Shown one piece after another: positions 22,249-37,823 of a stretch of DNA of 40,506 nt. This stretch comes from a virus. The notes under the pieces were generated by a model that worked only from the letters and a program-made list of their open reading frames with translations, did no database searches and was not told the DNA's origin. The stretch is taken from the IMG/VR virus record IMGVR_UViG_3300047678_000813, positions 1 to 40,506 of that record. One strand, 5' to 3'. The first letter of the stretch is position 1. Every line of letters starts with the position of its first letter. The translations under genes were made by a program, and so were the position numbers.

Positions 22249-22267
22249 GAGCCAACCTCCAATGGCA

Positions 22268-22300
22268 AACGCCCCGCCGATTTGCATCGCGCGGGGCGTT
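22268..22300 (-). terminator. hairpin between late regulator and late operon
   Basis: AACGCCCCGC and GCGGGGCGTT are perfect 10 bp arms around a 13 nt loop. It sits between the Q-like gene and the first late gene. In lambda a terminator at the equivalent place (tR') is overcome by Q. The T-run after the stem is short, so a transcription block that needs an antiterminator is plausible but unproven. Confidence 0.55.
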
Positions 22301-22371
22301 CAGGGTGAAGAAGACCTCAGCCTGCCTGAAATGTAGCGGTTTGCCACGCTCCGTAAAACTCCCAGGCCGTG

Positions 22372-23009: not shown

Positions 23010-23034
23010 TGCCCGATTCCTTTCTGGCTGCTTT

Positions 23035-25636: not shown

Positions 25637-25658
25637 GACGTGGCAGGCACAGACATGG

Positions 25659-26341: not shown

Positions 26342-26497
26342 GAGCACCCCTGTTGAGTTACCAGTTGAATCTGGGCAAAGCTGAAGGCATGCGATGCACT
26401 CAGTTCAGGCATGCCGAACCGGCCCAAGAGGGCGGGCACCCCACCGTGGCAGGATTGCAGTCCCACAACCACGTGGCCTGCCACGGCAGGGATACCC

Positions 26498-27072: not shown

Positions 27073-27134
27073 CTATGCGCATTCGCATTAGCTCGGCAAG
27101 CCCATTTGCATTATTCACTGGTGCATAGTATACA
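27073..27134. promoter_or_regulatory. divergent promoter/operator region of the immunity switch
   Basis: On the plus strand TTGCAT (27106-27111), 17 nt, TATACA (27129-27134) make a promoter whose -10 box ends only 1 nt before the repressor ATG. Operator-like palindromes are ATGCGCAT (27075-27082) with a neighbouring CGCATTA, and TGCATA at 27122-27127. There is no ribosome binding site before the repressor ATG. These elements overlap the probable promoter of the Cro-like gene, so repressor binding could control both directions. Confidence 0.6.
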
Positions 27135-27135
27135 G

Positions 27136-27603
27136 ATGGATCCCAAAGACCTCGTGCGCCGCCTCATCGACGCCCAAGGCGAAACCCCCAACTCCGTGGT
27201 GCACCTGACCCGGCCGCCCATGCAGCAGTCCACGCTGCACCGCTACCTCAAAAGCAACACCGGCGAAACTCGCCGCAAATCACTGGCGCCGCTGGCCGCG
27301 TACTTCGGTGTGCCCATCGAAGCCTTCTACGACCCCCGGGTGGCCGACCAGGTGGCCAAGGAAAAAGGCCTGGGCGACACCGCCACTGTCGTCGCCGCGC
27401 GCGACAACACCCACCGCGGCTACGAAGCGCAGACACCGGCCGCCATCCTGGCCCGCTTGGCTGACATCCTGCGCCACGTGCCCAGCGCATCGCGGGCACC
27501 CATCGGCGCGCTGCTCGACCGCTGGGCCCAAGCCGGCGGCGCCGCGTCCTATCAAAGCGCGCTGGAAACCCTGCTCAAGAACGAGGCACCCAAACCAGAC
27601 TGA
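27136..27603 (+). CDS. CI-like phage repressor
   Basis: The 155-residue protein is the probable prophage repressor. The N-terminus has a helix-turn-helix-like region (MDPKDLVRRLIDAQGETPNS, then QQSTLHRYLKSNTGETRRKS) followed by SLAPLAAYFGVPIEAFYDPR, the usual ending of XRE-type phage repressors. The C-terminal ~60 residues (AAILARLADILRHVP) are a small helical oligomerisation domain rather than a LexA-like peptidase, so induction by RecA self-cleavage is not indicated. It lies divergent to the Cro-like gene and upstream of the channel gene. Confidence 0.8.
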   Translation: MDPKDLVRRLIDAQGETPNSVVHLTRPPMQQSTLHRYLKSNTGETRRKSLAPLAAYFGVPIEAFYDPRVADQVAKEKGLGDTATVVAARDNTHRGYEAQTPAAILARLADILRHVPSASRAPIGALLDRWAQAGGAASYQSALETLLKNEAPKPD

Positions 27604-27611
27604 GCCACGCC

Positions 27612-28436
27612 ATGAATATCCGGCACCTTCGCGCAAAACTATTCAACATTTTGCACAAGCCCTCGCCGGAAAACCCGGCCGCACGGTACGCAAACTACTT
27701 CCTGGCCTTCCTTATATTTGCCAACGCCCTGTTCGTGGCGCTGGAAACCGTGCCCGCCCTGGCCAGCCGGTTTGCCCCGGCATTCAAGGCCTTCGAGGCC
27801 GCCTCCACCGCCCTCTTTGCGCTGGAATACGCCGCCCGCCTATGGGTGTGCACAGAGCAGGGCCGATACTCCCGCCGACTGCTCGGCCGCCTGGCCTACG
27901 CCGCGCACCCCCTGCCGCTGCTGGACCTGATCGTCATCGCCACCTACTGGCTGCCCATTGACCTGCGCTTTCTGCGCGTCGCCCGCATGGTGCGGCTGCT
28001 GAAAGTATTGCGACTGGACCATTTTGAAGAATCCCTGCACAAAGTCGGCGCCGGCCTGCGCCGCCGCACCGGCCTGATATTCATTGCCGTCACCATGATG
28101 GTGCTGTGCATCTATGCCTCATCGGCCCTGATCTACCAGCTCGAACACACCGCCCAGCCCGCCGCGTTCAGCAGCATCCCCGGCACCTTCTGGTGGGCGC
28201 TGGTCACCCTCACCACCATCGGCTACGGCGACATGGTGCCCCTCACCCCGGCGGGCAAGCTGTTCGCCGGCTTCATTTGCATCTTCGGCATCGGCATCTT
28301 TGCCCTGCCCACGGCCATCGTCACCGCCGTCATCGTCGAAGCCGGCGTCAGCGACCCCGAGCCACCCCGACCACTGGCCTGCCGCCATTGCGGCAAGCCC
28401 TGGCACCCCGCTCAGCCCCCGACCCCAGAACCGTAG
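27612..28436 (+). CDS. voltage-gated potassium channel
   Basis: The 274-residue protein is a six-helix K+ channel of the inner membrane. Membrane segments lie at about 26-46, 60-80, 95-112, 115-130, 150-170 and 205-235. The fourth is a voltage sensor with regularly spaced arginines (LRFLRVARMVRLLKVLRL). The pore helix and filter read FWWALVTLTTIGYGDMVP near 190-205, with the GYG signature intact. The C-terminus carries CRHCGKPWH, a possible zinc site. It starts 8 nt after the repressor stop, so it is probably expressed in the lysogen. Such a gene is not needed for phage growth; host membrane physiology or superinfection exclusion are possible roles, neither shown here. Confidence 0.9.
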   Translation: MNIRHLRAKLFNILHKPSPENPAARYANYFLAFLIFANALFVALETVPALASRFAPAFKAFEAASTALFALEYAARLWVCTEQGRYSRRLLGRLAYAAHPLPLLDLIVIATYWLPIDLRFLRVARMVRLLKVLRLDHFEESLHKVGAGLRRRTGLIFIAVTMMVLCIYASSALIYQLEHTAQPAAFSSIPGTFWWALVTLTTIGYGDMVPLTPAGKLFAGFICIFGIGIFALPTAIVTAVIVEAGVSDPEPPRPLACRHCGKPWHPAQPPTPEP

Positions 28437-28508
28437 CGGCCGCCGTTGGGGCCAGAGGCCCGCCGCACCGTCCCGGCCCATTCTCATGCGTCGTCATGCA
28501 CAAACGCA

Positions 28509-28537
28509 TTGACAACAGAATTGCATAACTGCATAGT
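28509..28537 (+). promoter_or_regulatory. promoter with operator-like TGCATA repeats
   Basis: TTGACA (28509-28514), 17 nt, CATAGT (28532-28537) form a good sigma70-type promoter for the plus-strand accessory genes. Two TGCATA copies (28522 and 28530) lie in and next to the -10 box; the same hexamer is in the immunity switch at 27122. This suggests the promoter is under repressor or Cro control. The 128 bp between the channel gene and 28565 hold nothing else I can identify. Confidence 0.6.
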
Positions 28538-28564
28538 CCGCCCCGTCCACCGACGGAGCGCAAG

Positions 28565-29035
28565 ATGCCCACATCCCTCACTGCCCCCGACCTGCTGGCC
28601 TACGCCAAGCGTCGGCTGGCCAGCCTGGCCAAAGAGGCACAGGCCTGTGTTGACGCCGCGGCCGCCGCCCCAGGCGCCGCTGAAAACCTGCGCCGCGCCA
28701 CGCAGATTGACCTCACGCACCGACGCGGCGATGCGTTGTACGAACTAGTATCGCTGTGCGGCGAGCTTGGCGCGCACGACGTCAGCGATCAGCTCGCCCA
28801 GCACATCGAGGCCTTCGCCACCCGCTGCATCGACCTGGCCTACACCACGCGCATGGCCAGCATCCCGCGGGCGCACGCCACCCCGCCTGCCTGCGCCACC
28901 TGCAACGGCCAGGGCCGCTACCGGCCGCCTTACAGCCTGGGCGTCACCGCCTGCCCCGACTGCTTGACGCGCCCGATCTCCACTGCCAGCGCCACCACCT
29001 CGGCGCCGGTGAACGCGCCCGGCAGCAGCGCCTGA
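28565..29035 (+). CDS. phage protein with DnaJ-like zinc ribbon
   Basis: The 156-residue protein is helical for the first ~95 residues (SLTAPDLLAYAKRRLASLAK) and then has CATCNGQGRYRPPYS and ACPDC, two CxxC pairs forming a zinc ribbon like that in DnaJ. The last ~30 residues are low-complexity Ser/Thr/Ala and overlap the convergent minus-strand gene by 106 nt, so the gene may have been extended at its 3' end. First gene after the TTGACA promoter. Function unknown. Confidence 0.65.
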   Translation: MPTSLTAPDLLAYAKRRLASLAKEAQACVDAAAAAPGAAENLRRATQIDLTHRRGDALYELVSLCGELGAHDVSDQLAQHIEAFATRCIDLAYTTRMASIPRAHATPPACATCNGQGRYRPPYSLGVTACPDCLTRPISTASATTSAPVNAPGSSA

Positions 29036-29178
29036 CACATGGCCCGCGCCGTCTTCAGCCGCTCGTACACCGTGACTGCCGCGTCCACCTCTTCGTTCGG
29101 CACGCGCGCGCAAGCCAGCACCTCCAGCCGCGCATCGAACTGGTCGGTCATGTCGTTGACATCGCTCTTCCTTGCCAT
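28930..29178 (-). CDS. small minus-strand phage protein
   Basis: The 82-residue protein (MARKSDVNDMTDQFDARLEV) has a strong AAGGAG ribosome binding site and normal helical composition, including AVTVYERLKTARAMCQALLP. It lies opposite to the flanking accessory genes and overlaps the 3' end of the preceding plus-strand gene tail to tail. I do not recognise it. The opposite orientation within a plus-strand operon suggests independent expression. Confidence 0.65.
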   Translation of the reverse strand: MARKSDVNDMTDQFDARLEVLACARVPNEEVDAAVTVYERLKTARAMCQALLPGAFTGAEVVALAVEIGRVKQSGQAVTPRL

Positions 29179-29260
29179 GTGCGCTCCTTCGCTCACCGGT
29201 GGGCTAACGCTCCATCGTAGGCGCAAGGCAGCCGCCCGTCCAACCTCCACGGAGGCCTCC

Positions 29261-29521
29261 ATGTCCGCCCAGCCCGCAACCGCGGCCGACGACGCCGAGC
29301 TCGACGCACGCCTGGCCGCGCACTTCCTGCCCTCGCGCCGCCTGGCCTGCGCCGCCCCCCAGCGCTACCTCGTCACTCTCACCCGCCCTGACGGCACCAC
29401 CGCCACCTGGCACCGCACCGGCGGCATCGCAGCCACCCATGCGCAGGAAGCGCACGACCAGGGCGGCCTGGGCAGCGTCGTGCGCGTCGTGCCCCTGCCT
29501 GACCACATGGCGGCCGCATGA
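29261..29521 (+). CDS. small phage protein
   Basis: The 86-residue protein (MSAQPATAADDAELDARLAA) has GGAGG upstream of the ATG. The C-terminal part APQRYLVTLTRPDGTTATWH and HDQGGLGSVVRVVPL looks like a small beta-rich domain of the kind seen in many phage accessory proteins. It overlaps the lipoprotein gene by ATGA. Function unknown. Confidence 0.65.
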   Translation: MSAQPATAADDAELDARLAAHFLPSRRLACAAPQRYLVTLTRPDGTTATWHRTGGIAATHAQEAHDQGGLGSVVRVVPLPDHMAAA

Positions 29522-29661
29522 CCCGCGCCCTGCTTGCCGCATTCGCTCTGTCCGCCCTGTGCTGCCTGCTCGCCGGCTGTGGCGGCGGCGGTGACGACGA
29601 CGAGGCCACCCGCAACACCCAGCCCGTGGACTGCAAGGCCCACCCGGAGCAGTGCAAATGA
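29518..29661 (+). CDS. small lipoprotein
   Basis: The 47-residue product begins MTRALLAAFALSALCCLLAG and continues with a cysteine at position 21: a basic start, a hydrophobic core and a LLAGC lipobox, hence a lipoprotein signal peptide. The mature part is about 27 residues with GGGG, an acidic stretch DDDE and two cysteines. It is coupled to both neighbours by ATGA overlaps. It lies far from the lysis genes, so it is not an obvious Rz1; phage lipoproteins encoded in lysogen-expressed regions often exclude superinfecting phages. It is too small for many gene finders. Confidence 0.7.
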   Translation: MTRALLAAFALSALCCLLAGCGGGGDDDEATRNTQPVDCKAHPEQCK

Positions 29662-29924
29662 CCACCACCCACCCGCCGCGGCGCCCGCACTCGGCCCCGC
29701 TGTACCTGGTGCACCCGCAGATGCCAGGCCCCCTGCCCGCCTGGCCCCACCCTGACGAACGCCAGCGCCAGGCCCTGCGCGCCGCGTGGGAAGACGGCCA
29801 CAGTGCAGGCGTCCGCAGCTGCTGGGCCACCGGCTGGCGCTGGGGCCTGCTGTGCGGCACCTGCGCCACCAGCCTGGGCGGCGCCCTGTGCCTGCTGCTG
29901 GCCAAGACCCTGGGCTACCTGTAG
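29658..29924 (+). CDS. small phage protein with C-terminal membrane segment
   Basis: The 88-residue protein has a Pro/His-rich start, then DERQRQALRAAWEDGHSAGV and a hydrophobic C-terminus (LCGTCATSLGGALCLLLAKT). It overlaps the lipoprotein gene by ATGA, which supports a joint function at the envelope. The single membrane segment at the end suggests tail anchoring in the inner membrane. Confidence 0.6.
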   Translation: MTTTHPPRRPHSAPLYLVHPQMPGPLPAWPHPDERQRQALRAAWEDGHSAGVRSCWATGWRWGLLCGTCATSLGGALCLLLAKTLGYL

Positions 29925-29936
29925 CCCACCGCCACC

Positions 29937-30197
29937 ATGGCCGCCACCGCCGCCCCTGCCGCGCCGCCCGAGCTGCGCGCCTGCACCCTGTGCACCCACC
30001 ACACCTGGGCCCACGGCGACACGCGACTGCACTGCGCAGAGCCCGTGGTGGCCGGCGCCCTGGGCATCGTGCCGTGCGAGGTAGCCCGCTACAGCGACGT
30101 AGGCGGCTGCGGCCGTGACGCCACCCGCATGCACTGGCCGCCACTGGAAGCACCCGTGCGCCGCATGCCGCAAGTCCTGTGGGCCACCGCCGCATGA
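29937..30197 (+). CDS. small cysteine-rich phage protein
   Basis: The 86-residue protein has CTLCTHHTWAHGDTRLHC near the start and a further Cys pair, suggesting a zinc-binding knuckle; the pattern of a short Cys/His cluster with the end MPQVLWATAA is common among Burkholderiales phage proteins. It overlaps the next gene by ATGA. No clear ribosome binding site precedes the ATG at 29937, so the start is uncertain. Confidence 0.55.
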   Translation: MAATAAPAAPPELRACTLCTHHTWAHGDTRLHCAEPVVAGALGIVPCEVARYSDVGGCGRDATRMHWPPLEAPVRRMPQVLWATAA

Positions 30198-30529
30198 AGC
30201 CCGACGAAGCGCCCCTCACCGACGAGCAGATTGCCCTGGCGTGGCGCCAGATGCACCGGCCGCCCACTTGGCCAGCCACGCTGGAAGAAGCGCTGCAGCA
30301 CCCCGTGCGCAAGAAGTGCATCTACGGCTGCGCCCGGCAGCTGGCCCGCGCCCCTTTTGCCCACCAGGCCGGCCCGCGCCACTCCCTGCCCGCGCCACCC
30401 GTGCCGCCCACGCCCACCCAGGCCCCAACGCGCCGGCAAGACGCGCAGGGCCTCACGCGCCCCAGGGCGCGCCTGCCCAAGCTCGAGTTCGACGCCCGCG
30501 CCGCCGCCGCCAATGACCTGTTTGACTGA
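30194..30529 (+). CDS. small phage protein
   Basis: The 111-residue protein has an N-terminal helical part (MKPDEAPLTDEQIALAWRQM, then WPATLEEALQHPVRKKCIYG) and a Pro/Arg-rich, probably disordered C-terminus ending NDLFD. It is coupled to its upstream neighbour by ATGA. The DEQIALAWRQM and EEALQHPVRKKCI segments suggest a small regulatory or nucleic-acid binding protein, but I cannot name a family. Confidence 0.55.
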   Translation: MKPDEAPLTDEQIALAWRQMHRPPTWPATLEEALQHPVRKKCIYGCARQLARAPFAHQAGPRHSLPAPPVPPTPTQAPTRRQDAQGLTRPRARLPKLEFDARAAAANDLFD

Positions 30530-30544
30530 CCGGAGACCCCGCCC

Positions 30545-30844
30545 ATGAACGCCCAACCCCTGCCCACCAACCAAGACATGCAACTGCTGCAGCGCGGCCT
30601 GGCCATCGGCAACCAGGCCGTCATCGAAACCGTCGAATGCGAAGCCGTGCGTGTGCAGCTGCCCGAGCCCGGCCGCTGGTACGACACCCGCCCCATGCTC
30701 GACCCGCGCGAGCACGCGCCCCAGGTCATCGACATGGCCGCCGAAGCGCTGAGTTACGGCGAAACCGCCGGCCTGCTGCGCCGCCACACCGCCCACCGCC
30801 ACCTGGTCTGCATCGTGCCCGAGGCTCAAGGCGGCGCCGCATGA
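30545..30844 (+). CDS. small phage protein
   Basis: The 99-residue protein (MNAQPLPTNQDMQLLQRGLA) has GGAGA upstream. The pattern AVIETVECEAVRVQLPEPGR followed by RHLVCIVPE is a compact alpha-beta arrangement. It overlaps the MazG-like gene by ATGA. Function unknown. Confidence 0.6.
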   Translation: MNAQPLPTNQDMQLLQRGLAIGNQAVIETVECEAVRVQLPEPGRWYDTRPMLDPREHAPQVIDMAAEALSYGETAGLLRRHTAHRHLVCIVPEAQGGAA

Positions 30845-31170
30845 GCGCGCCACCCCCGCGCCAGTACATCACCGAGCCCGGCGCGCTTGACGACATCCCT
30901 GTGGGCCTGGTGCTGCAACGCCACGCGCGGCCGGCGTCGCCCACCGCCGCCCCAGCCACCGGCACCGAGGCCCGCGTATGCCAGGACATCGGCCTGCGCC
31001 AGGCCCTGGGCCGCGCCAAGTACGGCACCACCGTCGAGGCCAACCCCCTCACCCACCGCCAGTGGCTGCAACACGCCTACGAAGAAGCGCTGGACCTGGC
31101 CATCTACCTCAAGCGCGCCATCGAGCAGATGGACCGCGACCAAGCCCCCAACCCACCGCCCGCACCATGA
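30841..31170 (+). CDS. MazG-like nucleotide pyrophosphohydrolase fragment/family protein
   Basis: The 109-residue protein has RQALGRAKYGTTVEANPLTH and WLQHAYEEALDLAIYLKRAI, the all-alpha NTP pyrophosphohydrolase signature in which the EE pair binds Mg2+. Phages use such enzymes to remove or rebalance (d)NTPs. The first ~50 residues are variable. It overlaps the parB-like gene by 4 nt (ATGA). Confidence 0.7.
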   Translation: MSAPPPRQYITEPGALDDIPVGLVLQRHARPASPTAAPATGTEARVCQDIGLRQALGRAKYGTTVEANPLTHRQWLQHAYEEALDLAIYLKRAIEQMDRDQAPNPPPAP

Positions 31171-31655
31171 CGCAAGACACCATCCTCGAAATCCCACTGG
31201 AAGACCTGCACGACAGCCCCTTCCAGCCCCGCGCCGACTACCGCGGCATCGAAGGCCTGGCCGAGTCCATCAAGGCCGAAGGCCGCATCCACCAGCCCCT
31301 GCTGGTGCGCCCGCGCGTGGGCCCCCTGTTCGCCGGCGACCCCGACGCCGCGGCCGGCTTTGAGATCGTCTTCGGCCACCGGCGCCGCCGCGGCGCCGAG
31401 CTGGCCGGCCTGTCCACCGCCCCGTGCACCGTGCGCGCCATGACCGACGCCCAGGTGCGCAGCGCCCAGATGGCCGAGAACATCGCGCGCGAGAACATGA
31501 GTGCGCTGGACGAAGGCGCCGGCTTCAAGGCCCAGATCGCCGCCGGCGCCGACGTCGCCCGCGAAGCCGAGGCCGTGGCGGTCAACTGCTACCGGAGCGT
31601 GCTAAAGGGGCAGGGGCACCTGCGGGTGATGAGCGCGCCGCTGGGTGGGGGTTGA
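31167..31655 (+). pseudogene. ParB-like N-terminal domain, probably truncated by the integron
   Basis: The 162-codon frame starts as a normal ParB/Spo0J N-terminal nuclease-like domain: LHDSPFQPRADYRGIEGLAE, then GHRRRRGAELAGL (the GxRRxRA motif) and SAQMAENIARENMSALDEGA. After about residue 138 (AREAEAVAV) the expected helix-turn-helix does not follow; instead a short unrelated tail ends at the first attC. ParB proteins of phages are usually about twice as long. The loss of homology coincides with the distal end of the cassette array, so I infer that the integron displaced the 3' part. A naturally short variant is possible. Confidence 0.65.
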
Positions 31656-31770
31656 ACGTGCCCATGAGCCGGACCCAACAGCACGCGACGAAGCATGACT
31701 GACTGCACTGCTACCGATACGCCACCGCTGGCCCATGCTGTTGGGGCTCGGCTCGATGGGCGGGTTATGG
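31651..31770 (-). other. attC of cassette 6 (distal)
   Basis: R' (GTTCAAC on the minus strand, 31651-31657) and R'' (GCCATAAC, 31764-31771) bound arms that pair through GCCCAT and CCAACAGCA. The loop is long. R'' contains the TAA stop of the helix-turn-helix gene, the usual cassette layout. Beyond it, 31585-31656 may be the start of a seventh, truncated cassette. Confidence 0.75.
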
Positions 31771-31944
31771 CGCTGTGTCCGAAGCGGGACGGCGCCCGCG
31801 CGGGAGCACTACACCGGCCCGCTGGCAGGCCCGGACAAGCGTGGACGGCGCCAGGCCGAGCAGCCCGGCGACAGTGCGCAGGGGCTGGCCCTGCGCGATC
31901 AGCTCAAGCGCCCTGGTGGTCAGGGCGGATTGTGTGCGGCTCAC
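31765..31944 (-). CDS. helix-turn-helix protein of cassette 6
   Basis: A 59-residue protein starting at GTG, overlapping the preceding stop by GTGA, reads VSRTQSALTTRALELIAQGQ and then a clear helix-turn-helix, LRTVAGLLGLAPSTLVRACQ, with a basic tail. The stop codon lies in the R'' box of the attC, as in classical cassettes. With the 92-residue gene it forms a two-gene unit that would be transcribed from the promoter at 32268-32296, where an inverted repeat offers a binding site. It is probably an autoregulator. It is too short for most gene finders. Confidence 0.75.
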   Translation of the reverse strand: MSRTQSALTTRALELIAQGQPLRTVAGLLGLAPSTLVRACQRAGVVLPRGRRPASDTAP

Positions 31945-32219
31945 GCGGCAGCATTGAACCAGCAGCCGTGGTCGTAGCCCAGCGCCGTGAGTTCGGCCAC
32001 TGGGTTCGCGGCGATCTTGCGGGCGAGGGATTCGCCTTCCTCAGCACTGTCGAAATCAGCGAGCTGCGCGTAGCCCATCCAGCCCTCGAACGGGCCGGTG
32101 ATGCACACGGTCCCGTTGTTGGCTTCAACGTAAACGTCGGCATTGTCCGGGGCGCCATCGGTTCCGAGCATTTCTTCGGTAGTGGTGTCGGTGCCGATCA
32201 GGTAGGAGGTGGTGCTCAT
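31941..32219 (-). CDS. cassette 6 protein, unknown function
   Basis: The 92-residue acidic protein starts MSTTSYLIGTDTTTEEMLGT and contains PFEGWMGYAQLADFDSAEEG. It has a GGAGAG ribosome binding site and is the only large cassette gene running in the direction expected from the attC sites. It is translationally coupled to the helix-turn-helix gene behind it. A toxin-antitoxin or other self-regulated pair is imaginable but nothing in the sequence identifies a toxin. Confidence 0.7.
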   Translation of the reverse strand: MSTTSYLIGTDTTTEEMLGTDGAPDNADVYVEANNGTVCITGPFEGWMGYAQLADFDSAEEGESLARKIAANPVAELTALGYDHGCWFNAAA

Positions 32220-32267
32220 GGTTTCTCTCCGGTTCAGGCCCCGCGACATGCAGAACCCATGAGCAGT

Positions 32268-32296
32268 AATGTACGCACAATCGCCGCATTGTGCAA
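32268..32296 (-). promoter_or_regulatory. cassette-borne promoter with operator palindrome
   Basis: On the minus strand TTGCAC, 17 nt, TACATT forms a promoter about 50 nt upstream of the 92-residue gene. Within it GCACAAT and ATTGTGC (32288-32294 and 32275-32281 on the plus strand) are perfect 7 bp arms separated by 6 bp, one helical repeat centre to centre. The palindrome spans the -35 to -10 spacer, the position for a repressor. The helix-turn-helix protein of the same cassette is the natural candidate to bind it. 32297-32377 shows nothing else. Confidence 0.65.
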
Positions 32297-32377
32297 ACAT
32301 TGCGTGCAAGGCCATGCGCCGCAGTCAACTATTACGCAAACATTCCGACGCGCTTCTGCTGTAGCCCAGCGGGAGCG

Positions 32378-32481
32378 CCATAACGTTCGAGCTTAACCGG
32401 ACGCAACGGCCGGCACGAACTGACAAGGAATGCTTGACTGTTGACCGGCCGTTGGGGCTCGGTTCGAGCGAGGGGTTGTGC
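32378..32481 (-). other. attC of cassette 5
   Basis: Read on the minus strand: R'' GCACAAC, L'' with TCGCTCGAACC, a long perfect stem CAACGGCCGG/CCGGCCGTTG, L' GGTTAAGC and R' CGTTATGGC. L'' has one base more than L', the extrahelical base that sets attC polarity. This half agrees with the published attC consensus (GCTKANCTCVRRCGTTAG). It is identical to the attC of cassette 3. Confidence 0.8.
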
Positions 32482-32517
32482 TTCACCCACCCGAAGCGCG
32501 CAACTGTAGGAACGCAA

Positions 32518-32766
32518 ATGGAACTGCGAAGTGGACGACTGATGGCGCTGGCCGCTGCGGCTGGCATGGCTGGCGAGTGGGCTGCGGTGCCCGACGAACT
32601 GGAGAAGATGGCGCAGGCCAAGATGCGCTTTGCCGCGATGGTCGGCACCGAGGCCAAGGTGAACATGCGCGGACAGCACCCGCTGGCGAAGTGGGGCCGC
32701 GACAAGCGCAAGGAAAAGGCGAAGGCCAAGATCGCGGCGGCTTCGCGCCGGAGGAACCGCAAGTGA
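32518..32766 (+). CDS. cassette 5 protein A, unknown function
   Basis: The 82-residue protein (MELRSGRLMALAAAAGMAGE) ends in a highly basic tail (DKRKEKAKAKIAAASRRRN) and may bind nucleic acid. It is preceded by AGGAA and followed by a second gene overlapping by GTGA. It runs opposite to the attC polarity. The 5' leader from the attC R'' box is about 40 nt, and the gene pair fills the cassette. A duplicate is at 33593-33841. Confidence 0.65.
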   Translation: MELRSGRLMALAAAAGMAGEWAAVPDELEKMAQAKMRFAAMVGTEAKVNMRGQHPLAKWGRDKRKEKAKAKIAAASRRRNRK

Positions 32767-33029
32767 GCGCGCAGCAGTTCCTGACCATCGCGGGCCGCTG
32801 GCGCGAACACGTCAAGGCGAGCGGCATTGACAAGGCGCTGCCGAAGCGCGAGCAGGGCCTGGCGATGATGATGTTCTACGCCGGCTTCAGTGCTGCGCTG
32901 GACGCGGGCCTTGAGGTGGCCGAGTTCCCGGAAGACGAGGCCATGCAGCTTCTGAGCGCGATGCACACCGAGGTGCAGCAAGTCGAGGCGCTGGCGGCCC
33001 GAGTGCTTTCTGGTGGCGCGCCGCAGTGA
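32763..33029 (+). CDS. cassette 5 protein B, unknown function
   Basis: The 88-residue protein starts at GTG behind an excellent GGAGGA site. It is helical (SAQQFLTIAGRWREHVKASG; EQGLAMMMFYAGFSAALDAG) and acidic toward the end. Its stop codon TGA lies directly beside GCACAAC, the start of the cassette on the minus strand. It looks like an ordinary phage or plasmid accessory protein; the family is unknown to me. Duplicate at 33838-34104. Confidence 0.65.
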   Translation: MSAQQFLTIAGRWREHVKASGIDKALPKREQGLAMMMFYAGFSAALDAGLEVAEFPEDEAMQLLSAMHTEVQQVEALAARVLSGGAPQ

Positions 33030-33030
33030 A

Positions 33031-33120
33031 GCACAACGTCGAAGCTAAGCGGGCGCCCCGTGCTGCTGGTGACGACACCCACAACTGATGTAGGCGCTCC
33101 GCTTGAGCGCAGGGTTCGGC
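33031..33120 (-). other. attC of cassette 4
   Basis: On the minus strand R'' GCCGAAC, L'' TGCGCTCAAGCGGAGCGCC, L' GGCGCCCGCTTAGCTTCGAC and R' GTTGTGC. GGCGC and GCGCC pairs extend the stem. The R'' is complementary to the first bases of the same cassette at 33453-33459. Confidence 0.78.
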
Positions 33121-33175
33121 CTCACTGGTGGCCGACGCTACCAACCGCCCGCAAGGGCACAACTGGAGAACGACG

Positions 33176-33451
33176 ATGACCAAGGTGAATGTGCAACTGG
33201 GCGACAAGGCCCGCGACACCGTGAGCGGCTTTGCTGGCGTGTGCGTGGCCCGCACCGAATGGCTGAACGGCTGCTGGCGCATGACGCTGCAACCGCAGGC
33301 GCTGGACAAGGACGGCAAGCCCTGCGAGGCGCAGACGTTCGATGATTTCCAACTGGAGGTGACCGAGCCGAAGCTACAGCCGGTTGGCAGCAAGGAAACC
33401 GGCGGCCCGCGCGATGCGCCTGCCAGGTCGCGCGACCCGGCGCGGGTGTGA
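33176..33451 (+). CDS. cassette 4 protein, phage-type
   Basis: The 91-residue protein (MTKVNVQLGDKARDTVSGFA, then ARTEWLNGCWRMTLQPQALD) has the look of a family of small phage proteins with the GDxxRDxVxGFxG and ARxEWLNGC pattern. GGAGA precedes the ATG by 7 nt. The last ~20 residues are low complexity. The stop TGA lies next to the attC R' core at 33453, so the gene fills the cassette but runs opposite to attC polarity. Confidence 0.7.
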   Translation: MTKVNVQLGDKARDTVSGFAGVCVARTEWLNGCWRMTLQPQALDKDGKPCEAQTFDDFQLEVTEPKLQPVGSKETGGPRDAPARSRDPARV

Positions 33452-33452
33452 G

Positions 33453-33556
33453 GCCGAACGTTCGAGCTTAACCGGACGCAACGGCCGGCACGAACTGACA
33501 AGGAATGCTTGACTGTTGACCGGCCGTTGGGGCTCGGTTCGAGCGAGGGGTTGTGC
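33453..33556 (-). other. attC of cassette 3
   Basis: Same sequence as the attC at 32378-32481 except for the outermost bases that belong to the neighbouring cassette (GGCCGAAC here instead of GCCATAAC), which is exactly what insertion of one cassette at two places predicts. Confidence 0.8.
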
Positions 33557-33592
33557 TTCACCCACCCGAAGCGCGCAACTGTAGGAACGCAA

Positions 33593-33841
33593 ATGGAACT
33601 GCGAAGTGGACGACTGATGGCGCTGGCCGCTGCGGCTGGCATGGCTGGCGAGTGGGCTGCGGTGCCCGACGAACTGGAGAAGATGGCGCAGGCCAAGATG
33701 CGCTTTGCCGCGATGGTCGGCACCGAGGCCAAGGTGAACATGCGCGGACAGCACCCGCTGGCGAAGTGGGGCCGCGACAAGCGCAAGGAAAAGGCGAAGG
33801 CCAAGATCGCGGCGGCTTCGCGCCGGAGGAACCGCAAGTGA
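33593..33841 (+). CDS. cassette 3 protein A (duplicate)
   Basis: Identical to the 82-residue basic protein at 32518-32766, with the same AGGAA site and the same overlap with the following gene. Confidence 0.65.
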   Translation: MELRSGRLMALAAAAGMAGEWAAVPDELEKMAQAKMRFAAMVGTEAKVNMRGQHPLAKWGRDKRKEKAKAKIAAASRRRNRK

Positions 33842-34104
33842 GCGCGCAGCAGTTCCTGACCATCGCGGGCCGCTGGCGCGAACACGTCAAGGCGAGCGGC
33901 ATTGACAAGGCGCTGCCGAAGCGCGAGCAGGGCCTGGCGATGATGATGTTCTACGCCGGCTTCAGTGCTGCGCTGGACGCGGGCCTTGAGGTGGCCGAGT
34001 TCCCGGAAGACGAGGCCATGCAGCTTCTGAGCGCGATGCACACCGAGGTGCAGCAAGTCGAGGCGCTGGCGGCCCGAGTGCTTTCTGGTGGCGCGCCGCA
34101 GTGA
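33838..34104 (+). CDS. cassette 3 protein B (duplicate)
   Basis: Identical to the 88-residue protein at 32763-33029. It too ends beside a GCACAAC core. Both copies are intact, so neither has begun to decay. Confidence 0.65.
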   Translation: MSAQQFLTIAGRWREHVKASGIDKALPKREQGLAMMMFYAGFSAALDAGLEVAEFPEDEAMQLLSAMHTEVQQVEALAARVLSGGAPQ

Positions 34105-34105
34105 A

Positions 34106-34225
34106 GCACAACGTTCGAGCTAAGGGGGCGCCAACAGCGCGAGGAAATGATGACTGACCACACTGCTACCGATGCGCCACCAGTGCGACTCGCTGTTGGT
34201 GCTCCCTTTCAGCGAGGGGTTAGCC
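34106..34225 (-). other. attC of cassette 2
   Basis: Minus strand: R'' GGCTAAC, L'' TCGCTGAAAGGGAGCACC, stem CAACAGCG/CGCTGTTG, L' GGCGCCCCCTTAGCTCGAAC, R' GTTGTGC. Its loop shares the sequence ATGACTGACNNCACTGCTACCGA (N = differing bases) with the loop of the cassette 6 attC, so the two long sites are related. On the plus strand the loop carries GAGGAAATGATG, a ribosome binding site and start codon. Confidence 0.78.
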
Positions 34226-34254
34226 GGCTGTTTGAAAACCGAGGAGAACTTTGC

Positions 34255-34533
34255 ATGAGTATGTTTGGCAGCATGAGAGGCACGGAGTACCGCGTGTGGT
34301 GCCCCGACCGTGGCGCAACCAAAGAGGACGGGCGCCGAATCTTGGCCTACGACGCAGAGAGCGCGGCGACCAAGTGGGCAGAGTGGGACGACGCCGCCAG
34401 CGCGGACTACACCATTGTTGGCGGCACACCGGCTGACGTGGTGGTGGCTGAAGAACGTGACGGCGCACCGGAACACCGATTCACGGTGTTTGGTGAGTCG
34501 CATCCCACGTACCGCGCACGGGCGGCAGCATGA
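34255..34533 (+). CDS. cassette 2 protein, phage-type
   Basis: The 92-residue protein (MSMFGSMRGTEYRVWCPDRG, then AYDAESAATKWAEWDDAASA and YTIVGGTPADVVV) matches a widespread type of small phage protein with a VWCPDRG motif. GAGGAGA precedes the ATG by 8 nt. An in-frame start at 34147, inside the attC loop, also has a ribosome binding site and would add 36 residues encoded by the attC. It overlaps the next gene by ATGA and runs opposite to attC polarity. Confidence 0.7.
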   Translation: MSMFGSMRGTEYRVWCPDRGATKEDGRRILAYDAESAATKWAEWDDAASADYTIVGGTPADVVVAEERDGAPEHRFTVFGESHPTYRARAAA

Positions 34534-35060
34534 GCATGGAGTGCCCGCCACTCCCGCCCACGCGCATGCGCCACCGTGGCGACAAGATCAACGCGCAGGG
34601 CCGCGTGTCCGCGCTGTGCTTTCCGAAGCCGCGCGCCATTGACATGAAGCGCGCGACCTGGGTGATGAGCGACGACGCGGTTACGTGCCCGAAATGCCGC
34701 GCGCTTATCTCGGCCCGCTGCGAGCCGGCTAACGTTGGAGCTGAGCCGGTGACCCCGGCCACGGAGGAAACGATGACCACAGAAGCAACGCCGGGGGCAC
34801 TCGGCTCGAACGACCGGTTGGGCGCTGTGTCCGAAGGGCTCTATTTGGCGAGCGAGCAACGTCCGCGCGATGGTGGGCCACGGTTCAGGGTGTCTGACGG
34901 CGGACGGGCGATCAGCGACGAGGATTTCATCTTTGACGCGCTGATCCGTGTGGGCGGCGACTTCGGCGGCGACGCGCTGCGGACGCGCTATGCACAGTGG
35001 ATGTGCGATGCACTGAACGAGGCCGACAAGACGCTGCCACGAGTGCCGCGTGGCGCCTAA
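34530..35060 (+). CDS. ORF spanning two cassettes across an attC
   Basis: The frame stays open for 176 codons through the attC at 34727-34823. The first ~65 residues are a phage-type zinc protein (VSALCFPKPRAIDMKRATWV, then AVTCPKCRALI). The attC contributes about 30 residues. The last ~75 (GLYLASEQRPRDGGPRFRVS, then FDALIRVGGDFGGDALRTRY) are an independent small protein of cassette 1, which could also start at ATG 34772, 6 nt after GGAGGAA inside the attC. Whether one fused protein or two separate proteins are made is unclear. The stop TAA lies in the attI core. Confidence 0.6.
   Translation: MSMECPPLPPTRMRHRGDKINAQGRVSALCFPKPRAIDMKRATWVMSDDAVTCPKCRALISARCEPANVGAEPVTPATEETMTTEATPGALGSNDRLGAVSEGLYLASEQRPRDGGPRFRVSDGGRAISDEDFIFDALIRVGGDFGGDALRTRYAQWMCDALNEADKTLPRVPRGA
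34727..34823 (-). other. attC of cassette 1
   Basis: Minus strand: R'' GCCCAAC, L'' CGTTCGAGCCGAGTGCCCCCGG, L' CCGGCTCAGCTCCAAC, R' GTTAGCC. R' GTTAGCC and the flanking GGC pair with the R'' of cassette 2 rather than with this R'', as expected for neighbouring cassettes. Confidence 0.75.
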
Positions 35061-35115
35061 CTTCAATTCGCCAGCACGCTAATTCAATCTCCGTTGCATA
35101 ACACGGCACGACGCG
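35055..35115 (-). other. probable attI site and intI promoter region
   Basis: On the minus strand the core GTTAGGC (35055-35061) starts cassette 1 and fits GTTRRRY. Between it and the integrase ATG lie 54 bp of AT-richer sequence with no attC-like arms on the core side, which is how attI differs from attC. Two TTCAAT repeats (35062, 35083) may be integrase binding or promoter elements. The exact attI limits and promoters cannot be set by eye. Confidence 0.65.
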
Positions 35116-35178
35116 ATGCAAGTCATTGATTTACAAGCACCGGCCGGAATTACGCCTGACGCGCCGCCCGTGTTATGC
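35096..35178. repeat. 11 bp inverted repeat with attC-like cores over the intI start
   Basis: GCATAACACGG (35096-35106) and CCGTGTTATGC (35168-35178) are perfect arms; imperfect pairing goes on inward (CACGACGCG against CGCGCCGC). The outer ends GCATAAC and GTTATGC look like R''/R' cores about 83 bp apart, an attC-sized distance. One arm lies within the predicted integrase reading frame. It may be a degenerate attC, part of attI, or a control element. Confidence 0.55.
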
Positions 35179-36126
35179 GACACCAAGCCGCCGAAGCGCA
35201 TCGAAGACCTAATGCGCGAGGCCTGCTCAGTGCGCCACTACAGCCGGCGCACCTTCCAGGCCTACTGGCATTGGTCGAAGCGCTTCATCCTGTGGTCTGG
35301 CAAGCGGCACCCGAAGGACATGGGGCAGGCCGAGGTCTCGGCCTTTCTCACCTGGCTGGCCACCGAAGGCAAGGTATCCGCCAGCACACAGCGCCAAGCG
35401 CTTCACGGCATTCGCTGGGTGGACGGCATCGTGCGCGCCAAGCAGCCGCAACGCCTGCCCACGGTCCTGACGGTGCAGGAAGTGGCGGCCGTGCTGGCAA
35501 CCACCCGCGGCACGCCTGGCCTGTTCCTGCGGCTGCTCTACGGCACCGGCCTGCGCCTGATGGAAGGCCTGCGGCTGCGCGTGAAGGACATCGACTTTGC
35601 GCAGCGCCTTGTGCTCGTGCGCGGCGGCAAGGGCGACAAAGACCGCGTGACGGTGCTCCCGGCCGGACTGGTGCAACCGCTGCAGACGCTGCTCGAAGAG
35701 CGTCGCAGGTGGCACCAGGTGGACCTGTGCACGGGCCGCGCCAGCGTGGACCTACCCAACGCCCTGGCCAGGAAATATCCCACGGCCGCCAGCGAATGGG
35801 CCTGGCAGTATGTCTTCGCCACGGCCGACTATCACGTCAACCCCGACACCGGCGAGCGGCGGCGACACCACATCTTCGACTGGACCATCCAGCGCGCCAT
35901 GAAAGAAGCTGTGCACGCCGCCGGCGTCTGCAAGCCCGCAACGCCGCACACCCTGCGTCACTGCTTCGCCACTCACCTGCTGCAAAGCGGCACCGACATC
36001 CGCAAGATCCAGGAACTGCTGGGCCATTCAAGCGTTGAGACGACGATGATTTACACCCACGTGGCGGGCATGGGCAGCGCAGGAGTGAGAAGCCCGCTTG
36101 ACGCCATGATGGGGCCCCGCGCATGA
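35116..36126 (+). CDS. intI: integron integrase IntI with N-terminal deletion
   Basis: The 336-residue tyrosine recombinase carries out attC x attI recombination. It has the IntI-specific insert (LARKYPTAASEWAWQYVF near 230-250) that separates IntI from other tyrosine recombinases. Catalytic residues are present: Arg in LLYGTGLRLMEGLRL (near 150), Lys in GGKGDKDR, HTLRHCF (HxxR), LLGHSSVETTMIYTH with His and the Tyr nucleophile. Compared with IntI1, the segment between TQRQAL and QRLPTVLT has 15 residues (HGIRWVDGIVRAKQP) where IntI1 has 27, so about 12 residues, the last core-binding helix, are missing. The stop overlaps the excisionase-like start by ATGA. A start further in is possible because the first 20 residues overlap an inverted repeat. 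Confidence 0.88.
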   Translation: MQVIDLQAPAGITPDAPPVLCDTKPPKRIEDLMREACSVRHYSRRTFQAYWHWSKRFILWSGKRHPKDMGQAEVSAFLTWLATEGKVSASTQRQALHGIRWVDGIVRAKQPQRLPTVLTVQEVAAVLATTRGTPGLFLRLLYGTGLRLMEGLRLRVKDIDFAQRLVLVRGGKGDKDRVTVLPAGLVQPLQTLLEERRRWHQVDLCTGRASVDLPNALARKYPTAASEWAWQYVFATADYHVNPDTGERRRHHIFDWTIQRAMKEAVHAAGVCKPATPHTLRHCFATHLLQSGTDIRKIQELLGHSSVETTMIYTHVAGMGSAGVRSPLDAMMGPRA

Positions 36127-36419
36127 CGCTGCAGGTCTACACCGCAGCCCAGGCCGCCGAGCTGCTCGGGTGCGCACAGGGCACCGTCGAAGACATGGCC
36201 CGGGACGGCCGCCTGCCCGGCATCAAGCCCGGCGGCACTTGGGTGTTTCCGGCCGGCGCGCTGGCCCTGCGGCTGGACGAGCTCGCCCTCGAGGAAGCCG
36301 CCGCGCGGCGCAAGCCGCTGCCACCGTCCGCAAGCACCCGGCCACCCGCGCCGTCCGCCAGGCGCGGCCCCAAGCCGCGGCCACTACCCCGCCTGGTGGA
36401 CGTTGGCGAGGGCGGCTGA
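36123..36419 (+). CDS. excisionase-like helix-turn-helix protein
   Basis: The 98-residue protein has an N-terminal MerR-type helix-turn-helix (TAAQAAELLGCAQGTVEDMA, then GRLPGIKPGGTWVFPAGALA) of about 55 residues, typical of excisionase-like or HTH_17 proteins beside phage integrases, and a basic Pro-rich tail. Convergent to the integrase gene with 3 nt between stops. Excisionase function is inferred from position; the fold is clear. Confidence 0.75.
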   Translation: MTLQVYTAAQAAELLGCAQGTVEDMARDGRLPGIKPGGTWVFPAGALALRLDELALEEAAARRKPLPPSASTRPPAPSARRGPKPRPLPRLVDVGEGG

Positions 36420-36422
36420 CCC

Positions 36423-37583
36423 CTACCCCAGTCGCGCCGCCAGATCCTCGCCGCGCAGGCTGGCGTACCTCAGCGCCATGGCCAGGCTCGACCAGCCCAT
36501 GATCCGCGCCACCTCCACGTCGGCGAACACCCAGCGCCCCGCGGCGTCCCGCAGCTCAAACCACCTGCAGGTGGCCTCGTGCCGCAGATCATGCTCCGTC
36601 AGGCCGGCCGCGCCGGCATAGTCGAACAGCGTGCGGAACCGCGCTGAAAGCCGCCGCGTGGCCGGGTCCAGCCCTTCCGGCGTGCCATCCCAATAGGGCC
36701 ACAGCAGCCCCACCCGCCCACGGCACCAGTCGGCCAGCGGCTGGCGCAGGTGCACCGGCACCGGCACCACCCGTGGCTTAGCCTGGCCGCGCACGCCCTT
36801 GCTGCCTTCCACCCGCAACACGCCCTTGCCCGGATCCACCTGGTCGACCCGCAGCCGGTACGCCTCGCGCAGTCGCAGGCCCGTGCTCACCAGCACATCG
36901 AACAACAGCGTCATGGGCGCGTCGCCCGCTTCGGCCCATGGGCGCTCACGGTCGGGGCGCTTTTCGCCGGCCAGGGCCCGACGGATGGCCGCTTCCTCGG
37001 CCGGCAGCACCCGGCGGTCGCGGTGCTGGTCCACCTTCGCAGGCAAGCCCTGCTGGGCCATGCGTTCGCGCTCGGCCGCGGTGTACTGGCTGTACCCCTT
37101 GGGCAGCAGCCGCAATGGGTTCACCGGCGCCACCGCATCCGCGGCGGCGTGCGTGGCCAGGTGCCAGTCCAGCACCCGCGCCAGGCCGCCCACGCGCTTG
37201 CGGATGGTGCCCGGCGCCAGGTGCTGCTCGAGCTTCATGCGGCGTACCCACGCATTCGCCCAGCGGAACGACACCTCGCTCAGCTTCACGGGTGCCAGCT
37301 CGTCCAGCATGCCGGCCAGCAGCCTGTCATCCGACGGTGTCAGGTGCGGCGCGCCGGCCAGGTACGCACGCACCACCGCCATCAGCGGCGGCGCCACGGC
37401 CGACGGTGCAGGCGTCTGCAGCTCCGTCGGCAGCACACCGGCGTCCAGCATCGCATCCAGCTGCTGCCCGTAAGCCTGCGCCTCGGGCTCGGCGCCGAAG
37501 GTGGCATAGAACGGCCGCGGCAGCAGCTTGTGCTTGACCCGCAGTTCCCAGCGCCGCCCACGCGGCCGGACGTGGTACGCCAT
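36423..37583 (-). CDS. prophage tyrosine integrase
   Basis: The 386-residue protein is the phage integrase. The N-terminal part has a short arm-binding region (MAYHVRPRGRRWELRVKHKL), then a core-binding helical domain to about residue 190. The catalytic domain has VSTGLRLREAYRLRVDQVD (first Arg), GVRGQAKPRVVPVP (Lys region), LTEHDLRHEATCRW (HxLRH) and WSSLAMALRYASLRG (Tyr). It starts 166 bp from tRNA-Cys and reads away from it, the usual geometry for an integrase by an attachment site in a tRNA 3' end. Confidence 0.9.
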   Translation of the reverse strand: MAYHVRPRGRRWELRVKHKLLPRPFYATFGAEPEAQAYGQQLDAMLDAGVLPTELQTPAPSAVAPPLMAVVRAYLAGAPHLTPSDDRLLAGMLDELAPVKLSEVSFRWANAWVRRMKLEQHLAPGTIRKRVGGLARVLDWHLATHAAADAVAPVNPLRLLPKGYSQYTAAERERMAQQGLPAKVDQHRDRRVLPAEEAAIRRALAGEKRPDRERPWAEAGDAPMTLLFDVLVSTGLRLREAYRLRVDQVDPGKGVLRVEGSKGVRGQAKPRVVPVPVHLRQPLADWCRGRVGLLWPYWDGTPEGLDPATRRLSARFRTLFDYAGAAGLTEHDLRHEATCRWFELRDAAGRWVFADVEVARIMGWSSLAMALRYASLRGEDLAARLG

Positions 37584-37660: not shown

Positions 37661-37749
37661 TCCCGAGGAGTGTGGCGGATTTCCAGCGGCTTGAGGCGGC
37701 GCGAGAAATTGCGCTTCGCCTCTAAGTGCCTGATTTTGCTGAAGAATTT

Positions 37750-37823
37750 TGGAGGCGCGATCCGGAGTCGAACCGGACTGGACGGATTTGCAATCCGTTG
37801 CATAACCGCTTTGCTATCGCGCC
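37750..37823 (-). tRNA. tRNA-Cys(GCA)
   Basis: GGCGCGA and TCGCGCC form the acceptor stem; the anticodon stem-loop reads GGATTGCAAATCC with anticodon GCA; the T loop GGTTCGACTCC is intact and CCA is encoded. The 3' end faces the prophage, so it is the probable attB, restored after integration. Confidence 0.93.

What the first reader, a model, noticed from the sequence alone, without database searches (positions are those of the whole stretch)
31657..36126. An integron (intI, attI, six cassettes) lies inside a prophage
Seen: an IntI-type integrase with the IntI-specific insert, six attC-like sites with paired R''/R' cores, and cassettes whose ends are complementary to their own attC. The block is flanked by phage genes on both sides (MazG-like and ParB-like on the left, excisionase-like and phage integrase on the right). 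Known: integrons are usually chromosomal or carried by transposons and plasmids; a phage carrier would give an array a route between cells. Inference: the prophage acquired the integron and it now sits at its recombination module, next to the phage integrase. If the phage packages it, it is a mobile integron of an unusual kind.
Basis: partly seen in the sequence, partly recalled or inferred. Interest (0 to 1): 0.9.

Follow-up and report, generated by a model that had tools for sequence, protein, structure and literature searches.

The report
Phage-resident integron with back-to-front cassettes
A virus of bacteria carries its own gene-swapping platform (an integron); it belongs to a whole lineage of phages that keep such platforms, with the swapped genes turned round so that they read with the neighbouring phage genes.

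Summary
31657-36126 is a complete integron: an intact IntI (TIGR02249, 396 bits, cut-off 265), an attI-like site at its 5' end and six attC sites (72-98 bits, minus strand), inside a prophage whose right end lies in tRNA-Cys (about 37749-37793). Integrons in phages were published in 2023 (Qi et al.), mostly as captures from host or class 1 integrons. This one differs. Its IntI falls in a clade of 68 viral-contig sequences plus 3 from MAGs (support 0.97-0.99); other sampled bacterial IntIs lie outside. A second tyrosine recombinase follows IntI in 27 of 38 clade records; two records look circular. attC sites have the normal orientation relative to intI, but the cassette genes point the other way: 61 reversed to 9 in the clade, 42 to 8 in new loci, 8 to 73 in bacterial integrons. 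So the genes read with the phage genes upstream, towards intI. Recombination looks active: an exact cassette duplication here, array turnover between near-identical phages at AA^C, and one phage contig with two attI junctions. Most likely this is a phage-owned cassette platform for accessory genes, expressed by phage transcription. Activity, expression and packaging are not shown experimentally.

The parts
35116..36126 (+). intI, integron integrase of the phage clade (an internal ATG at 35175 lies in another frame)
   Evidence: TIGR02249 396.5 bits; 2a3v E 4.6e-69; best viral relatives 82-63% identical over nearly the whole length
35055..35115 (.). attI-like site at the 5' end of intI; core NNNNAAC-NNN-AATTC, the insertion point at 35059-35061 (AA^C)
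   Evidence: aligned with ten relatives; motif upstream of intI in 53 of 61 clade loci, 23 of 1420 random windows; junctions of sister phages switch here
34727..34823 (-). attC of cassette 1 (nearest intI)
   Evidence: R1 88.7 bits, R2 69.8 bits
34106..34225 (-). attC of cassette 2
   Evidence: R1 98 bits
33453..33556 (-). attC of cassette 3
   Evidence: R1 94.6 bits
33031..33120 (-). attC of cassette 4
   Evidence: R1 71.7 bits
32378..32481 (-). attC of cassette 5
   Evidence: R1 94.9 bits
31651..31770 (-). attC of cassette 6 (terminal)
   Evidence: R1 89.1 bits; its middle, 31703-31759, is 96% identical in L058/L059
34733..35060 (-). cassette 1, 328 bp; gene on the plus strand, end of ORF 34530-35060
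   Evidence: crossover points; ORF direction
34112..34732 (-). cassette 2, 621 bp; gene 34255-34533 on the plus strand
   Evidence: phrog_21008 E 7e-19 on the plus strand
33459..34111 (-). cassette 3, 653 bp; exact copy of cassette 5; genes on the plus strand
   Evidence: 658-bp identical block
33037..33458 (-). cassette 4, 422 bp; gene 33176-33451 on the plus strand
   Evidence: phrog_16275 E 1.1e-13
32384..33036 (-). cassette 5, 653 bp; genes 32520-32766 and 32763-33029 on the plus strand (no family match)
31657..32383 (-). cassette 6, 727 bp; the one cassette with its gene on the minus strand (31941-32315)
31167..31655 (+). ParB N-terminal domain fused in frame to the C-terminus of the gene that borders the array in L007/L008: left border of the array
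36123..36419 (+). excisionase-type HTH protein, overlaps the end of intI
   Evidence: TIGR01764 36 bits, cut-off 28.8
36423..37583 (-). phage integrase (second tyrosine recombinase)
   Evidence: PF00589; 76% identical in G040 beside its IntI
37749..37793 (.). attR core within tRNA-Cys (37750-37823)
   Evidence: 45 bp, 97.8% identical to the attL-side repeat of the integron-free prophage in G463; tRNA
1..26347 (-). minus-strand prophage block: holin, tail, head, portal, terminase, neck, primase/helicase (23279-25636); left end of the prophage is outside the window
27106..31655 (+). rightward run of mostly unknown phage genes that leads into the integron, same direction as the cassette genes and intI
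   Evidence: codon model (one 88-aa minus-strand ORF at 28930-29196 scores within it); PHROG matches for 27612-28436, 30841-31170 and ParB

Best explanation
This is a working integron that belongs to the phage and not to the host: one member of a lineage of phage-resident integrons. IntI inserts circular cassettes at the attI just upstream of its own gene and excises them at attC, with normal strand choice (the bottom strand, here the window plus strand). The cassettes are turned inside out compared with bacterial ones: their genes run against the attC orientation, hence with the rightward phage genes upstream, and end at intI. Because IntI fixes the orientation of insertion, a captured gene of this type lands in the direction of phage transcription. 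The array is then the variable 3' part of a phage operon that goes on into intI and, here, xis. The platform probably lets the phage swap small accessory genes (methyltransferases and many unknown phage families in relatives). Shown by sequence: the anatomy, the clade, the reversal, the crossover points, the traces of recombination. Inferred: transcription from a phage promoter upstream, current enzyme activity, packaging, and the benefit.
For: IntI and attC. Clade: 39 viral + 3 MAG sequences, support 0.99, among 166; 68 + 3, support 0.974, among 209. Best bacterial IntI found is 59-60% identical against 82% for viral contigs. Layout: head, tail, portal or terminase matches in 12 of 17 clade records, in all 12 on the opposite strand to IntI; a second PF00589 recombinase within 3 kb downstream of IntI in 27 of 38 clade records (counted). 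attC orientation: 118 of 124 hits on the minus strand with intI plus (partly training sites). Reversal: (61:9; codon model 75:3), repeated (42:8; 43:1), against 8:73 in bacterial integrons. Family matches confirm plus-strand genes. Genes left of the array: more plus than minus coding in 18 of 18 clade loci with enough sequence. Activity: duplicated cassette exact to the crossover, array turnover, two attI junctions in G027. Circular-looking records G004 and G027, with portal, head and tail genes in G004 and a terminase in G027.
Against: No experiment. The window lacks the left end of the prophage, and its ParB gene looks like a deletion chimera, so this copy may be decaying; in G040 the IntI match is split between two frames. 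One of six window cassettes, and a minority elsewhere, is canonical; many cassettes are unclear (37 of 107, 24 of 74). The clade rests on local supports; the bootstrap run did not finish. Many records are fragments, and near-identical contigs inflate the clade. 11 of 38 clade records show no second recombinase within 3 kb (5 of them have under 1.6 kb there). No LexA box was found upstream of intI. The primase is on the minus strand, so the rightward genes are not simply the replication operon.
Confidence: 0.82

Rival explanations
1. A chromosomal integron was captured once by this prophage, as described for Vibrio and Shewanella phages.
For: Published precedents (PMC9892861). The likely host group has such integrases: 121 of 399 genomes of the order of the Pelomonas genome G050 have an IntI-type match at E <= 1e-85.
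Against: Of the bacterial loci placed in the trees, only three MAG loci fall in the clade of this IntI, two of them apparently the same sequence as viral records L018 and L024. Its cassette genes are reversed, unlike those of bacterial integrons; in the named Shewanella phage M16-3 the annotated genes run away from intI, the usual direction.
Confidence: 0.07
2. The integron is a dead relic in a decaying prophage.
For: ParB fusion, probably by deletion; the window is cut on the left.
Against: IntI is open over 336 aa and matches the family over nearly its length; two copies of one cassette are identical over 653 bp; near-identical sister phages differ in their arrays.
Confidence: 0.08
3. The reversal is an artefact: attC strand or gene strand is misread.
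For: R''/R' cores are symmetric and read both ways; short ORFs in GC-rich DNA are ambiguous, and an antisense ORF did mislead this study once (the primase region).
Against: The strand is set by asymmetric features: the models built here find bacterial attC on the same strand relative to intI (47 of 47; 104 of 113). Plus-strand cassette genes have PHROG and Pfam matches. The result was repeated on loci that did not train the models.
Confidence: 0.05
4. IntI serves as the phage's own integrase (lysogeny at bacterial attC or attI) and the array is a by-product.
For: The excision points of Vibrio phage p16 are flanked by attC sites (PMC9892861).
Against: This prophage ends in tRNA-Cys beside its own integrase; 27 of 38 clade records have a second tyrosine recombinase beside IntI.
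Confidence: 0.04

Closest known systems
Integrons in phage genomes, Qi et al. 2023 (Vibrio phages p16 and p42, Shewanella phage M16-3, P1; CALINs in 17 phages)
   Same: intI, attI or attC in phage genomes; methyltransferase cassettes; phages as carriers
   Different: Those intI are of host chromosomal or class 1 type, and the CALINs lack intI; M16-3 genes run away from intI. Here: an own IntI clade, a recurrent place in the phage genome and reversed cassette genes.
Sedentary chromosomal integrons of Betaproteobacteria
   Same: IntI about 50-60% identical, attC found by the same model on the same strand relative to intI
   Different: Cassette genes 73:8 in the attC sense
Class 1 mobile integrons (IntI1)
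   Same: Same mechanism class
   Different: IntI only 52% identical to that of the P1 record MH445380, which carries class 1 integrons; no resistance gene recognised in the window's cassettes
Inverse integrons (intI in the same direction as the array; recalled, no call)
   Same: intI and cassette genes on one strand
   Different: There the array lies beyond the 3' end of intI in its sense; here attC and attI keep the normal geometry and only the genes are turned

Membership tests
Complete integron | Integron-type tyrosine recombinase with the IntI-specific insert | tested here: met
   TIGR02249 above cut-off; alignment to 2a3v
Complete integron | attC sites with R''-L''-L'-R' pairing and extrahelical bases | tested here: met
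   strand rule from PMC2727003 (passages)
Complete integron | attI beside intI, cassettes inserted at G^TT | tested here: met
   Motif in 53 of 61 loci and junctions; by sequence only, recombination not tested
Complete integron | attC recognised by the IntegronFinder/HattCI models | not testable with these tools
   Models not available; own models R1 and R2 used
Complete integron | Cassette genes in the attC sense, expressed from Pc (typical rather than defining) | tested here: not met
   Five of six cassettes reversed; Pc itself not tested
Complete integron | intI under LexA control (common, not defining) | tested here: inconclusive
   No LexA-type box just upstream of intI at up to one mismatch; one inside intI; 9 in the window, 15 expected by chance
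Phage capture of a host chromosomal integron (Qi 2023 type) | IntI groups with chromosomal IntI of the host group | tested here: not met
   Own clade
Temperate phage (prophage) | Head, tail, packaging and integration genes, att site at a tRNA | tested here: met
   left end outside the window
Class 1 integron | IntI1 nearly identical to the class 1 type | tested here: not met
   52% identity to the IntI in MH445380

The most novel reading that the evidence does not exclude
Phages have had their own integron class for a long time: an IntI lineage resident in temperate phages of Betaproteobacteria and relatives, with a pool of inverted cassettes adapted to phage transcription, shuffled between phages as a library of accessory (perhaps counter-defence) genes.
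Probability: 0.6. Interest if true: 0.92.

Novelty: new variant of a known kind. Interest (0 to 1): 0.84.

Why it matters
Integrons are taught as bacterial devices that express captured genes from their own promoter. A phage lineage with its own integron and a gene pool turned to the phage's transcription would be a second, independent use of the machinery. It would show how phage accessory genes are exchanged cassette by cassette, and would give a ready list of genes to test for counter-defence. It also makes cassette orientation testable as a selected trait: swap the orientation and measure expression and retention. Cassettes could in principle move between phage and bacterial arrays, since one attC model finds both.

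Tried and rejected
1. Took the conserved 100-bp block at 31536-31643 for attI; rejected when its reading frame showed it to be the 3' end of the gene bordering the array.

2. First read the array as pointing at intI (cassettes on the plus strand, attI at the far end), from the ORFs and the symmetric R''/R' cores; rejected by the bulge asymmetry and by the models' strand in bacterial integrons.

3. First took ORF 22808-25441 (plus) for the start of a plus-strand early operon. It has no PHROG match; the minus-strand ORF 23279-25636 is a primase/helicase (E 3e-159) and wins by codon use. So the plus-strand run starts near 27.1 kb, and the matches labelled prim22808 are antisense shadows.

4. A regex attC finder with arm scores was too loose and was replaced by covariance models.

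5. IQ-TREE: one run failed on the thread number, one hit the time limit; its interim tree, without supports, shows the same grouping (31 viral + 2 genome sequences of 91). FastTree supports are used.

6. An Acb2/Tad1 hairpin match in a cassette of L032 (G030:8177-8293) is 21 bits, below the 27-bit cut-off: a lead only.

7. LexA box just upstream of intI: none. Print: searches (listings) gave Qi et al. [quoted passage not shown] no listed title or abstract start names a phage-specific IntI clade or reversed phage cassettes. The library holds open PMC papers and no preprints.

8. Counts and rows dropped., phage side: of the 124 hits, the minus-strand hits in clade loci, in L045 (not in the trees, its IntI match is split; 78% identical to clade member L026) and in L059 (IntI only a fragment), plus two R1-only sites (L007, L008). 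Left out: hits in loci outside the clade (L038, L039, L042, L046, L048, L053, L056, L062) and two plus-strand hits (L021, L032); near-copies L003, L025, L030 and L058 were not searched with R2., bacterial side: 94 of 113 hits picked by hand (56:6; codon 18:1), so repeats it with all 113 (73:8), including the Vibrio phage L168. One search left out four L274 sites downstream of intI, loci outside the clade, and 14 identical cassette copies. Intervals under 150 or over 1500 bp were not scored. Cassette proteins: 87 of the 97 non-window ORFs, plus six window ORFs, went into the family scans; they include two loci outside the clade (L048, L062).
Full report
WHAT IS THERE. The window is an IMG/VR virus record of 40,506 bases. 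The minus strand from 1 to about 26.3 kb encodes a holin, tail proteins, a major head protein, portal, head-tail joining protein, terminase subunits, a neck protein and a primase/helicase at 23279-25636. A mostly plus-strand run of phage genes from about 27.1 kb leads to a ParB-type gene. Then come the integron, a small excisionase-type protein (TIGR01764, 36 bits, cut-off 28.8), a phage integrase on the minus strand, tRNA-Cys and tRNA-Gly and a Lon gene, presumably the host's (phrog_15585; named by its 87% match beside the G463 prophage, the name Lon being recalled). IntI (35116-36126, plus) scores 396.5 bits against the integron integrase model (cut-off 265), and its best solved relative is 2a3v, an integron integrase.

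attC SITES. Five of the six sites were aligned and a covariance model (R1) was built with their stem; 93.6% of pair cells are standard pairs and covariation exceeds all 500 shuffles. R1 finds the six window sites at 72-98 bits, all on the minus strand (five of them trained it). In 63 sources (the window and viral loci, nearly all with IntI) 107 of 109 hits at E <= 1 are on the minus strand with intI on the plus. In 50 further loci, mostly from bacterial genomes, 47 of 47 hits at E <= 0.1 are on the minus strand too. Controls: in 20 related prophage loci found by their phage integrase, only L069, which has no IntI match in the 16.9 kb held, has a clear attC (65 bits; the rest are 16.4 bits or less). 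A second model (R2) from 104 sites has 333 double-changed pair cells against 102 in shuffles. On the 20 integrase-found loci plus 11 other phage stretches it gives hits at E <= 0.01 only in L069 and L181; three loci have 18-bit hits (E about 0.3). L181 is the start of G027, an integron phage whose IntI lies at the other contig end, so it is not a control.

ORIENTATION. In attC an unpaired base of one arm decides which strand recombines, and hence the direction of insertion (PMC2727003, passages). By that asymmetry, and by agreement with bacterial integrons on the same models, the window's array has the usual geometry: attI lies at the 5' end of intI and the cassettes run leftwards on the minus strand. 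Yet five of its six cassettes hold their gene on the plus strand; the genes at 33176-33451 and 34255-34533 have PHROG matches. Across the phage clade, cassettes scored between detected attC sites give 61 reversed, 9 canonical and 37 unclear by longest ORF (107 cassettes, 27 loci), and 75:3 with 29 unclear by a codon model. The codon model was trained on window genes and on IntI genes. A second set, from two further IMG/VR scans with R2 sites, gives 42:8 with 24 unclear (74 cassettes, 22 loci) and 43:1 with 30 unclear by codon model. All 113 R2 hits in 64 loci, 62 bacterial and the Shewanella and Vibrio phages L167 and L168, give 73 canonical, 8 reversed and 23 unclear in 104 cassettes of 42 loci (Fisher p 2e-23 against 61:9). 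Cassettes within a lineage are not independent, so the p-value overstates; the ratio and its replication are the point. The genes left of the array (up to 5 kb) are mainly on the plus strand in 18 of 18 clade loci with at least 2.5 kb there (three further loci, L048, L056 and L062, are outside the clade).

A PHAGE CLADE. In 399 genomes of the order of a Pelomonas genome, 121 have a match at E <= 1e-85, the best at 60%. In a tree of 166 sequences, 39 viral and 3 genome sequences form a clade with support 0.99; with more viral contigs it is 68 + 3 of 209, support 0.974. The three genome loci are MAG contigs; L090 and L095 appear to be the same sequence as viral records L018 and L024. Several viral contigs are near-copies, so 68 is not a count of independent phages. 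Thirty-one other viral or named-phage IntIs lie outside this clade. A bootstrap analysis did not finish.

PLACE IN THE PHAGE. Of 17 clade records fetched nearly whole, 12 have matches to the window's terminase, portal, head or tail proteins (23-45% identity), in all 12 on the strand opposite to IntI; G002, G004, G006, G012 and G019 have none. For G004 the PHROG scan does find them. Counted, 27 of 38 clade records (G040 and G047, with split or partial IntI, included) have a second PF00589 recombinase within 3 kb downstream of IntI; of the other 11, five have less than 1.6 kb of sequence there. G040 has IntI-xis-Int like the window, with Int 76% and xis 65% identical, though its IntI match is split between two frames. 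G004 has an exact 127-bp terminal repeat, as a circular genome gives; it encodes portal, major head protein, tail proteins, primase/helicase and an integrase beside IntI. An integron-free relative sits in tRNA-Cys of genome G463 between 46-bp repeats about 39.6 kb apart, with Int 69% and xis 66% identical, a weak ParB-like match (29%) and no IntI match; 45 bp of that repeat are 97.8% identical to window 37749-37793. So both flanks of the integron belong to one prophage.

TRACES OF RECOMBINATION. (a) Cassettes 3 and 5 of the window are identical over 653 bp, with identity ending just beyond the predicted crossovers (658-bp block). (b) L020 and L044 are about 95% identical on both sides of arrays with no similarity at E 1e-10; the switch is at the AAC core on the left and at the attI core on the right. 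L032 and L035 (flanks 99.7% and 100%) show the same. L027 and L050 (94% and 95.5%) switch sharply on the attI side only; L007 and L008 share the left border up to its AAC. (c) The attI core NNNNAAC-NNN-AATTC stands upstream of IntI in 53 of 61 clade loci against 23 of 1420 random windows; its first four bases vary, as expected if they come from the last cassette inserted. (d) Both ends of contig G027 carry the same 126 bp of attI and intI start, but one end runs into cassette 1 and the other for 27 bp into a sequence found inside the array at 1934, switching at GTT. This suggests two attI junctions in one phage population; a chimeric contig end is not excluded.

LEFT BORDER. The ParB ORF of the window joins a ParB N-terminus to the C-terminus of the gene that borders the array in L007 and L008; in L008 the two lie over 4 kb apart. 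A deletion in the window is the simplest reading.

CARGO. Of 93 proteins scanned (92 plus-strand ORFs and one minus-strand ORF of the window), PHROG matches include DNA methyltransferase families (3 members), a helicase family (3), DHH phosphoesterase and PAPS reductase (1 each) and unknown families (48 families in all, 25 shown). Pfam gives 13 families, among them methylases, helicase domains and DUF5131. PADLOC matches are led by type II methyltransferases (3 members). Qi et al. also found methyltransferases in phage cassettes and suggested that such cassettes could overcome phage defence.

MECHANISM. Shown from sequence: anatomy, clade, reversal, crossovers. From established knowledge: IntI recombines the attC bottom strand with attI and fixes the insertion orientation. 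Inferred: with genes reversed relative to attC, insertion places them in the direction of the phage genes upstream, whose transcription would read through the array into intI (and here xis). Such cassettes would lie antisense to the promoter of a bacterial integron, which would keep the two pools partly separate.

AGAINST PRINT. Qi et al. 2023 (PMC9892861; parts 1-4 of 7 read; passages) report 3 complete integrons, one intI without cassettes and 17 CALINs in 10,705 phage genomes; the main text holds no 'phylogen', 'opposite' or 'reverse'. Searches (listings) showed no report of a phage-specific IntI clade or of reversed cassettes in phages; the library lacks preprints and most subscription journals. 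Passages on phages in the Natural History of Integrons review concern phage resistance and phage therapy. So: a new variant of a known kind.

Noticed in passing
L038 (attC at 11138, 11471, 12748), L053 (11860), L299 (10579), L309 (3755): In viral loci outside the main clade attC hits lie on the plus strand beyond the 3' end of intI: the geometry of 'inverse' integrons (term recalled). Plus-strand hits are also seen in bacterial loci L220, L212, L235, L209, L224.
   Followed up: no
L169 (Virus Rctr41k, KX853513), 1-5678: A named virus carries an IntI-type protein (43% identical) at the end of a run of co-directional small genes, annotated as integrase-like; neither R1 (E <= 0.1) nor R2 (E <= 0.01) found attC there.
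   Followed up: partly
window 23036-23190: Cluster of GTCCAAC repeats in direct and inverted order beside the primase gene, perhaps an origin or operator.
   Followed up: no
L069 11420-11515 and 11930-12001: A relative with the same integrase type has two attC sites between Int and xis but no IntI match in the part held: a CALIN-like remnant.
   Followed up: partly
L003 1552-1756 and L004 8763-9009: 84-bp tandem repeats inside a large cassette; copy number differs between two near-identical phages.
   Followed up: no
L032 cassette, G030:8177-8293: Weak match to the Acb2/Tad1 hairpin domain (anti-CBASS/anti-Thoeris family, meaning recalled), below the curated cut-off.
   Followed up: partly
G463:C1 621649-661303: Integron-free prophage of about 39.7 kb in tRNA-Cys with 46-bp att repeats, relative of the window prophage.
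   Followed up: partly
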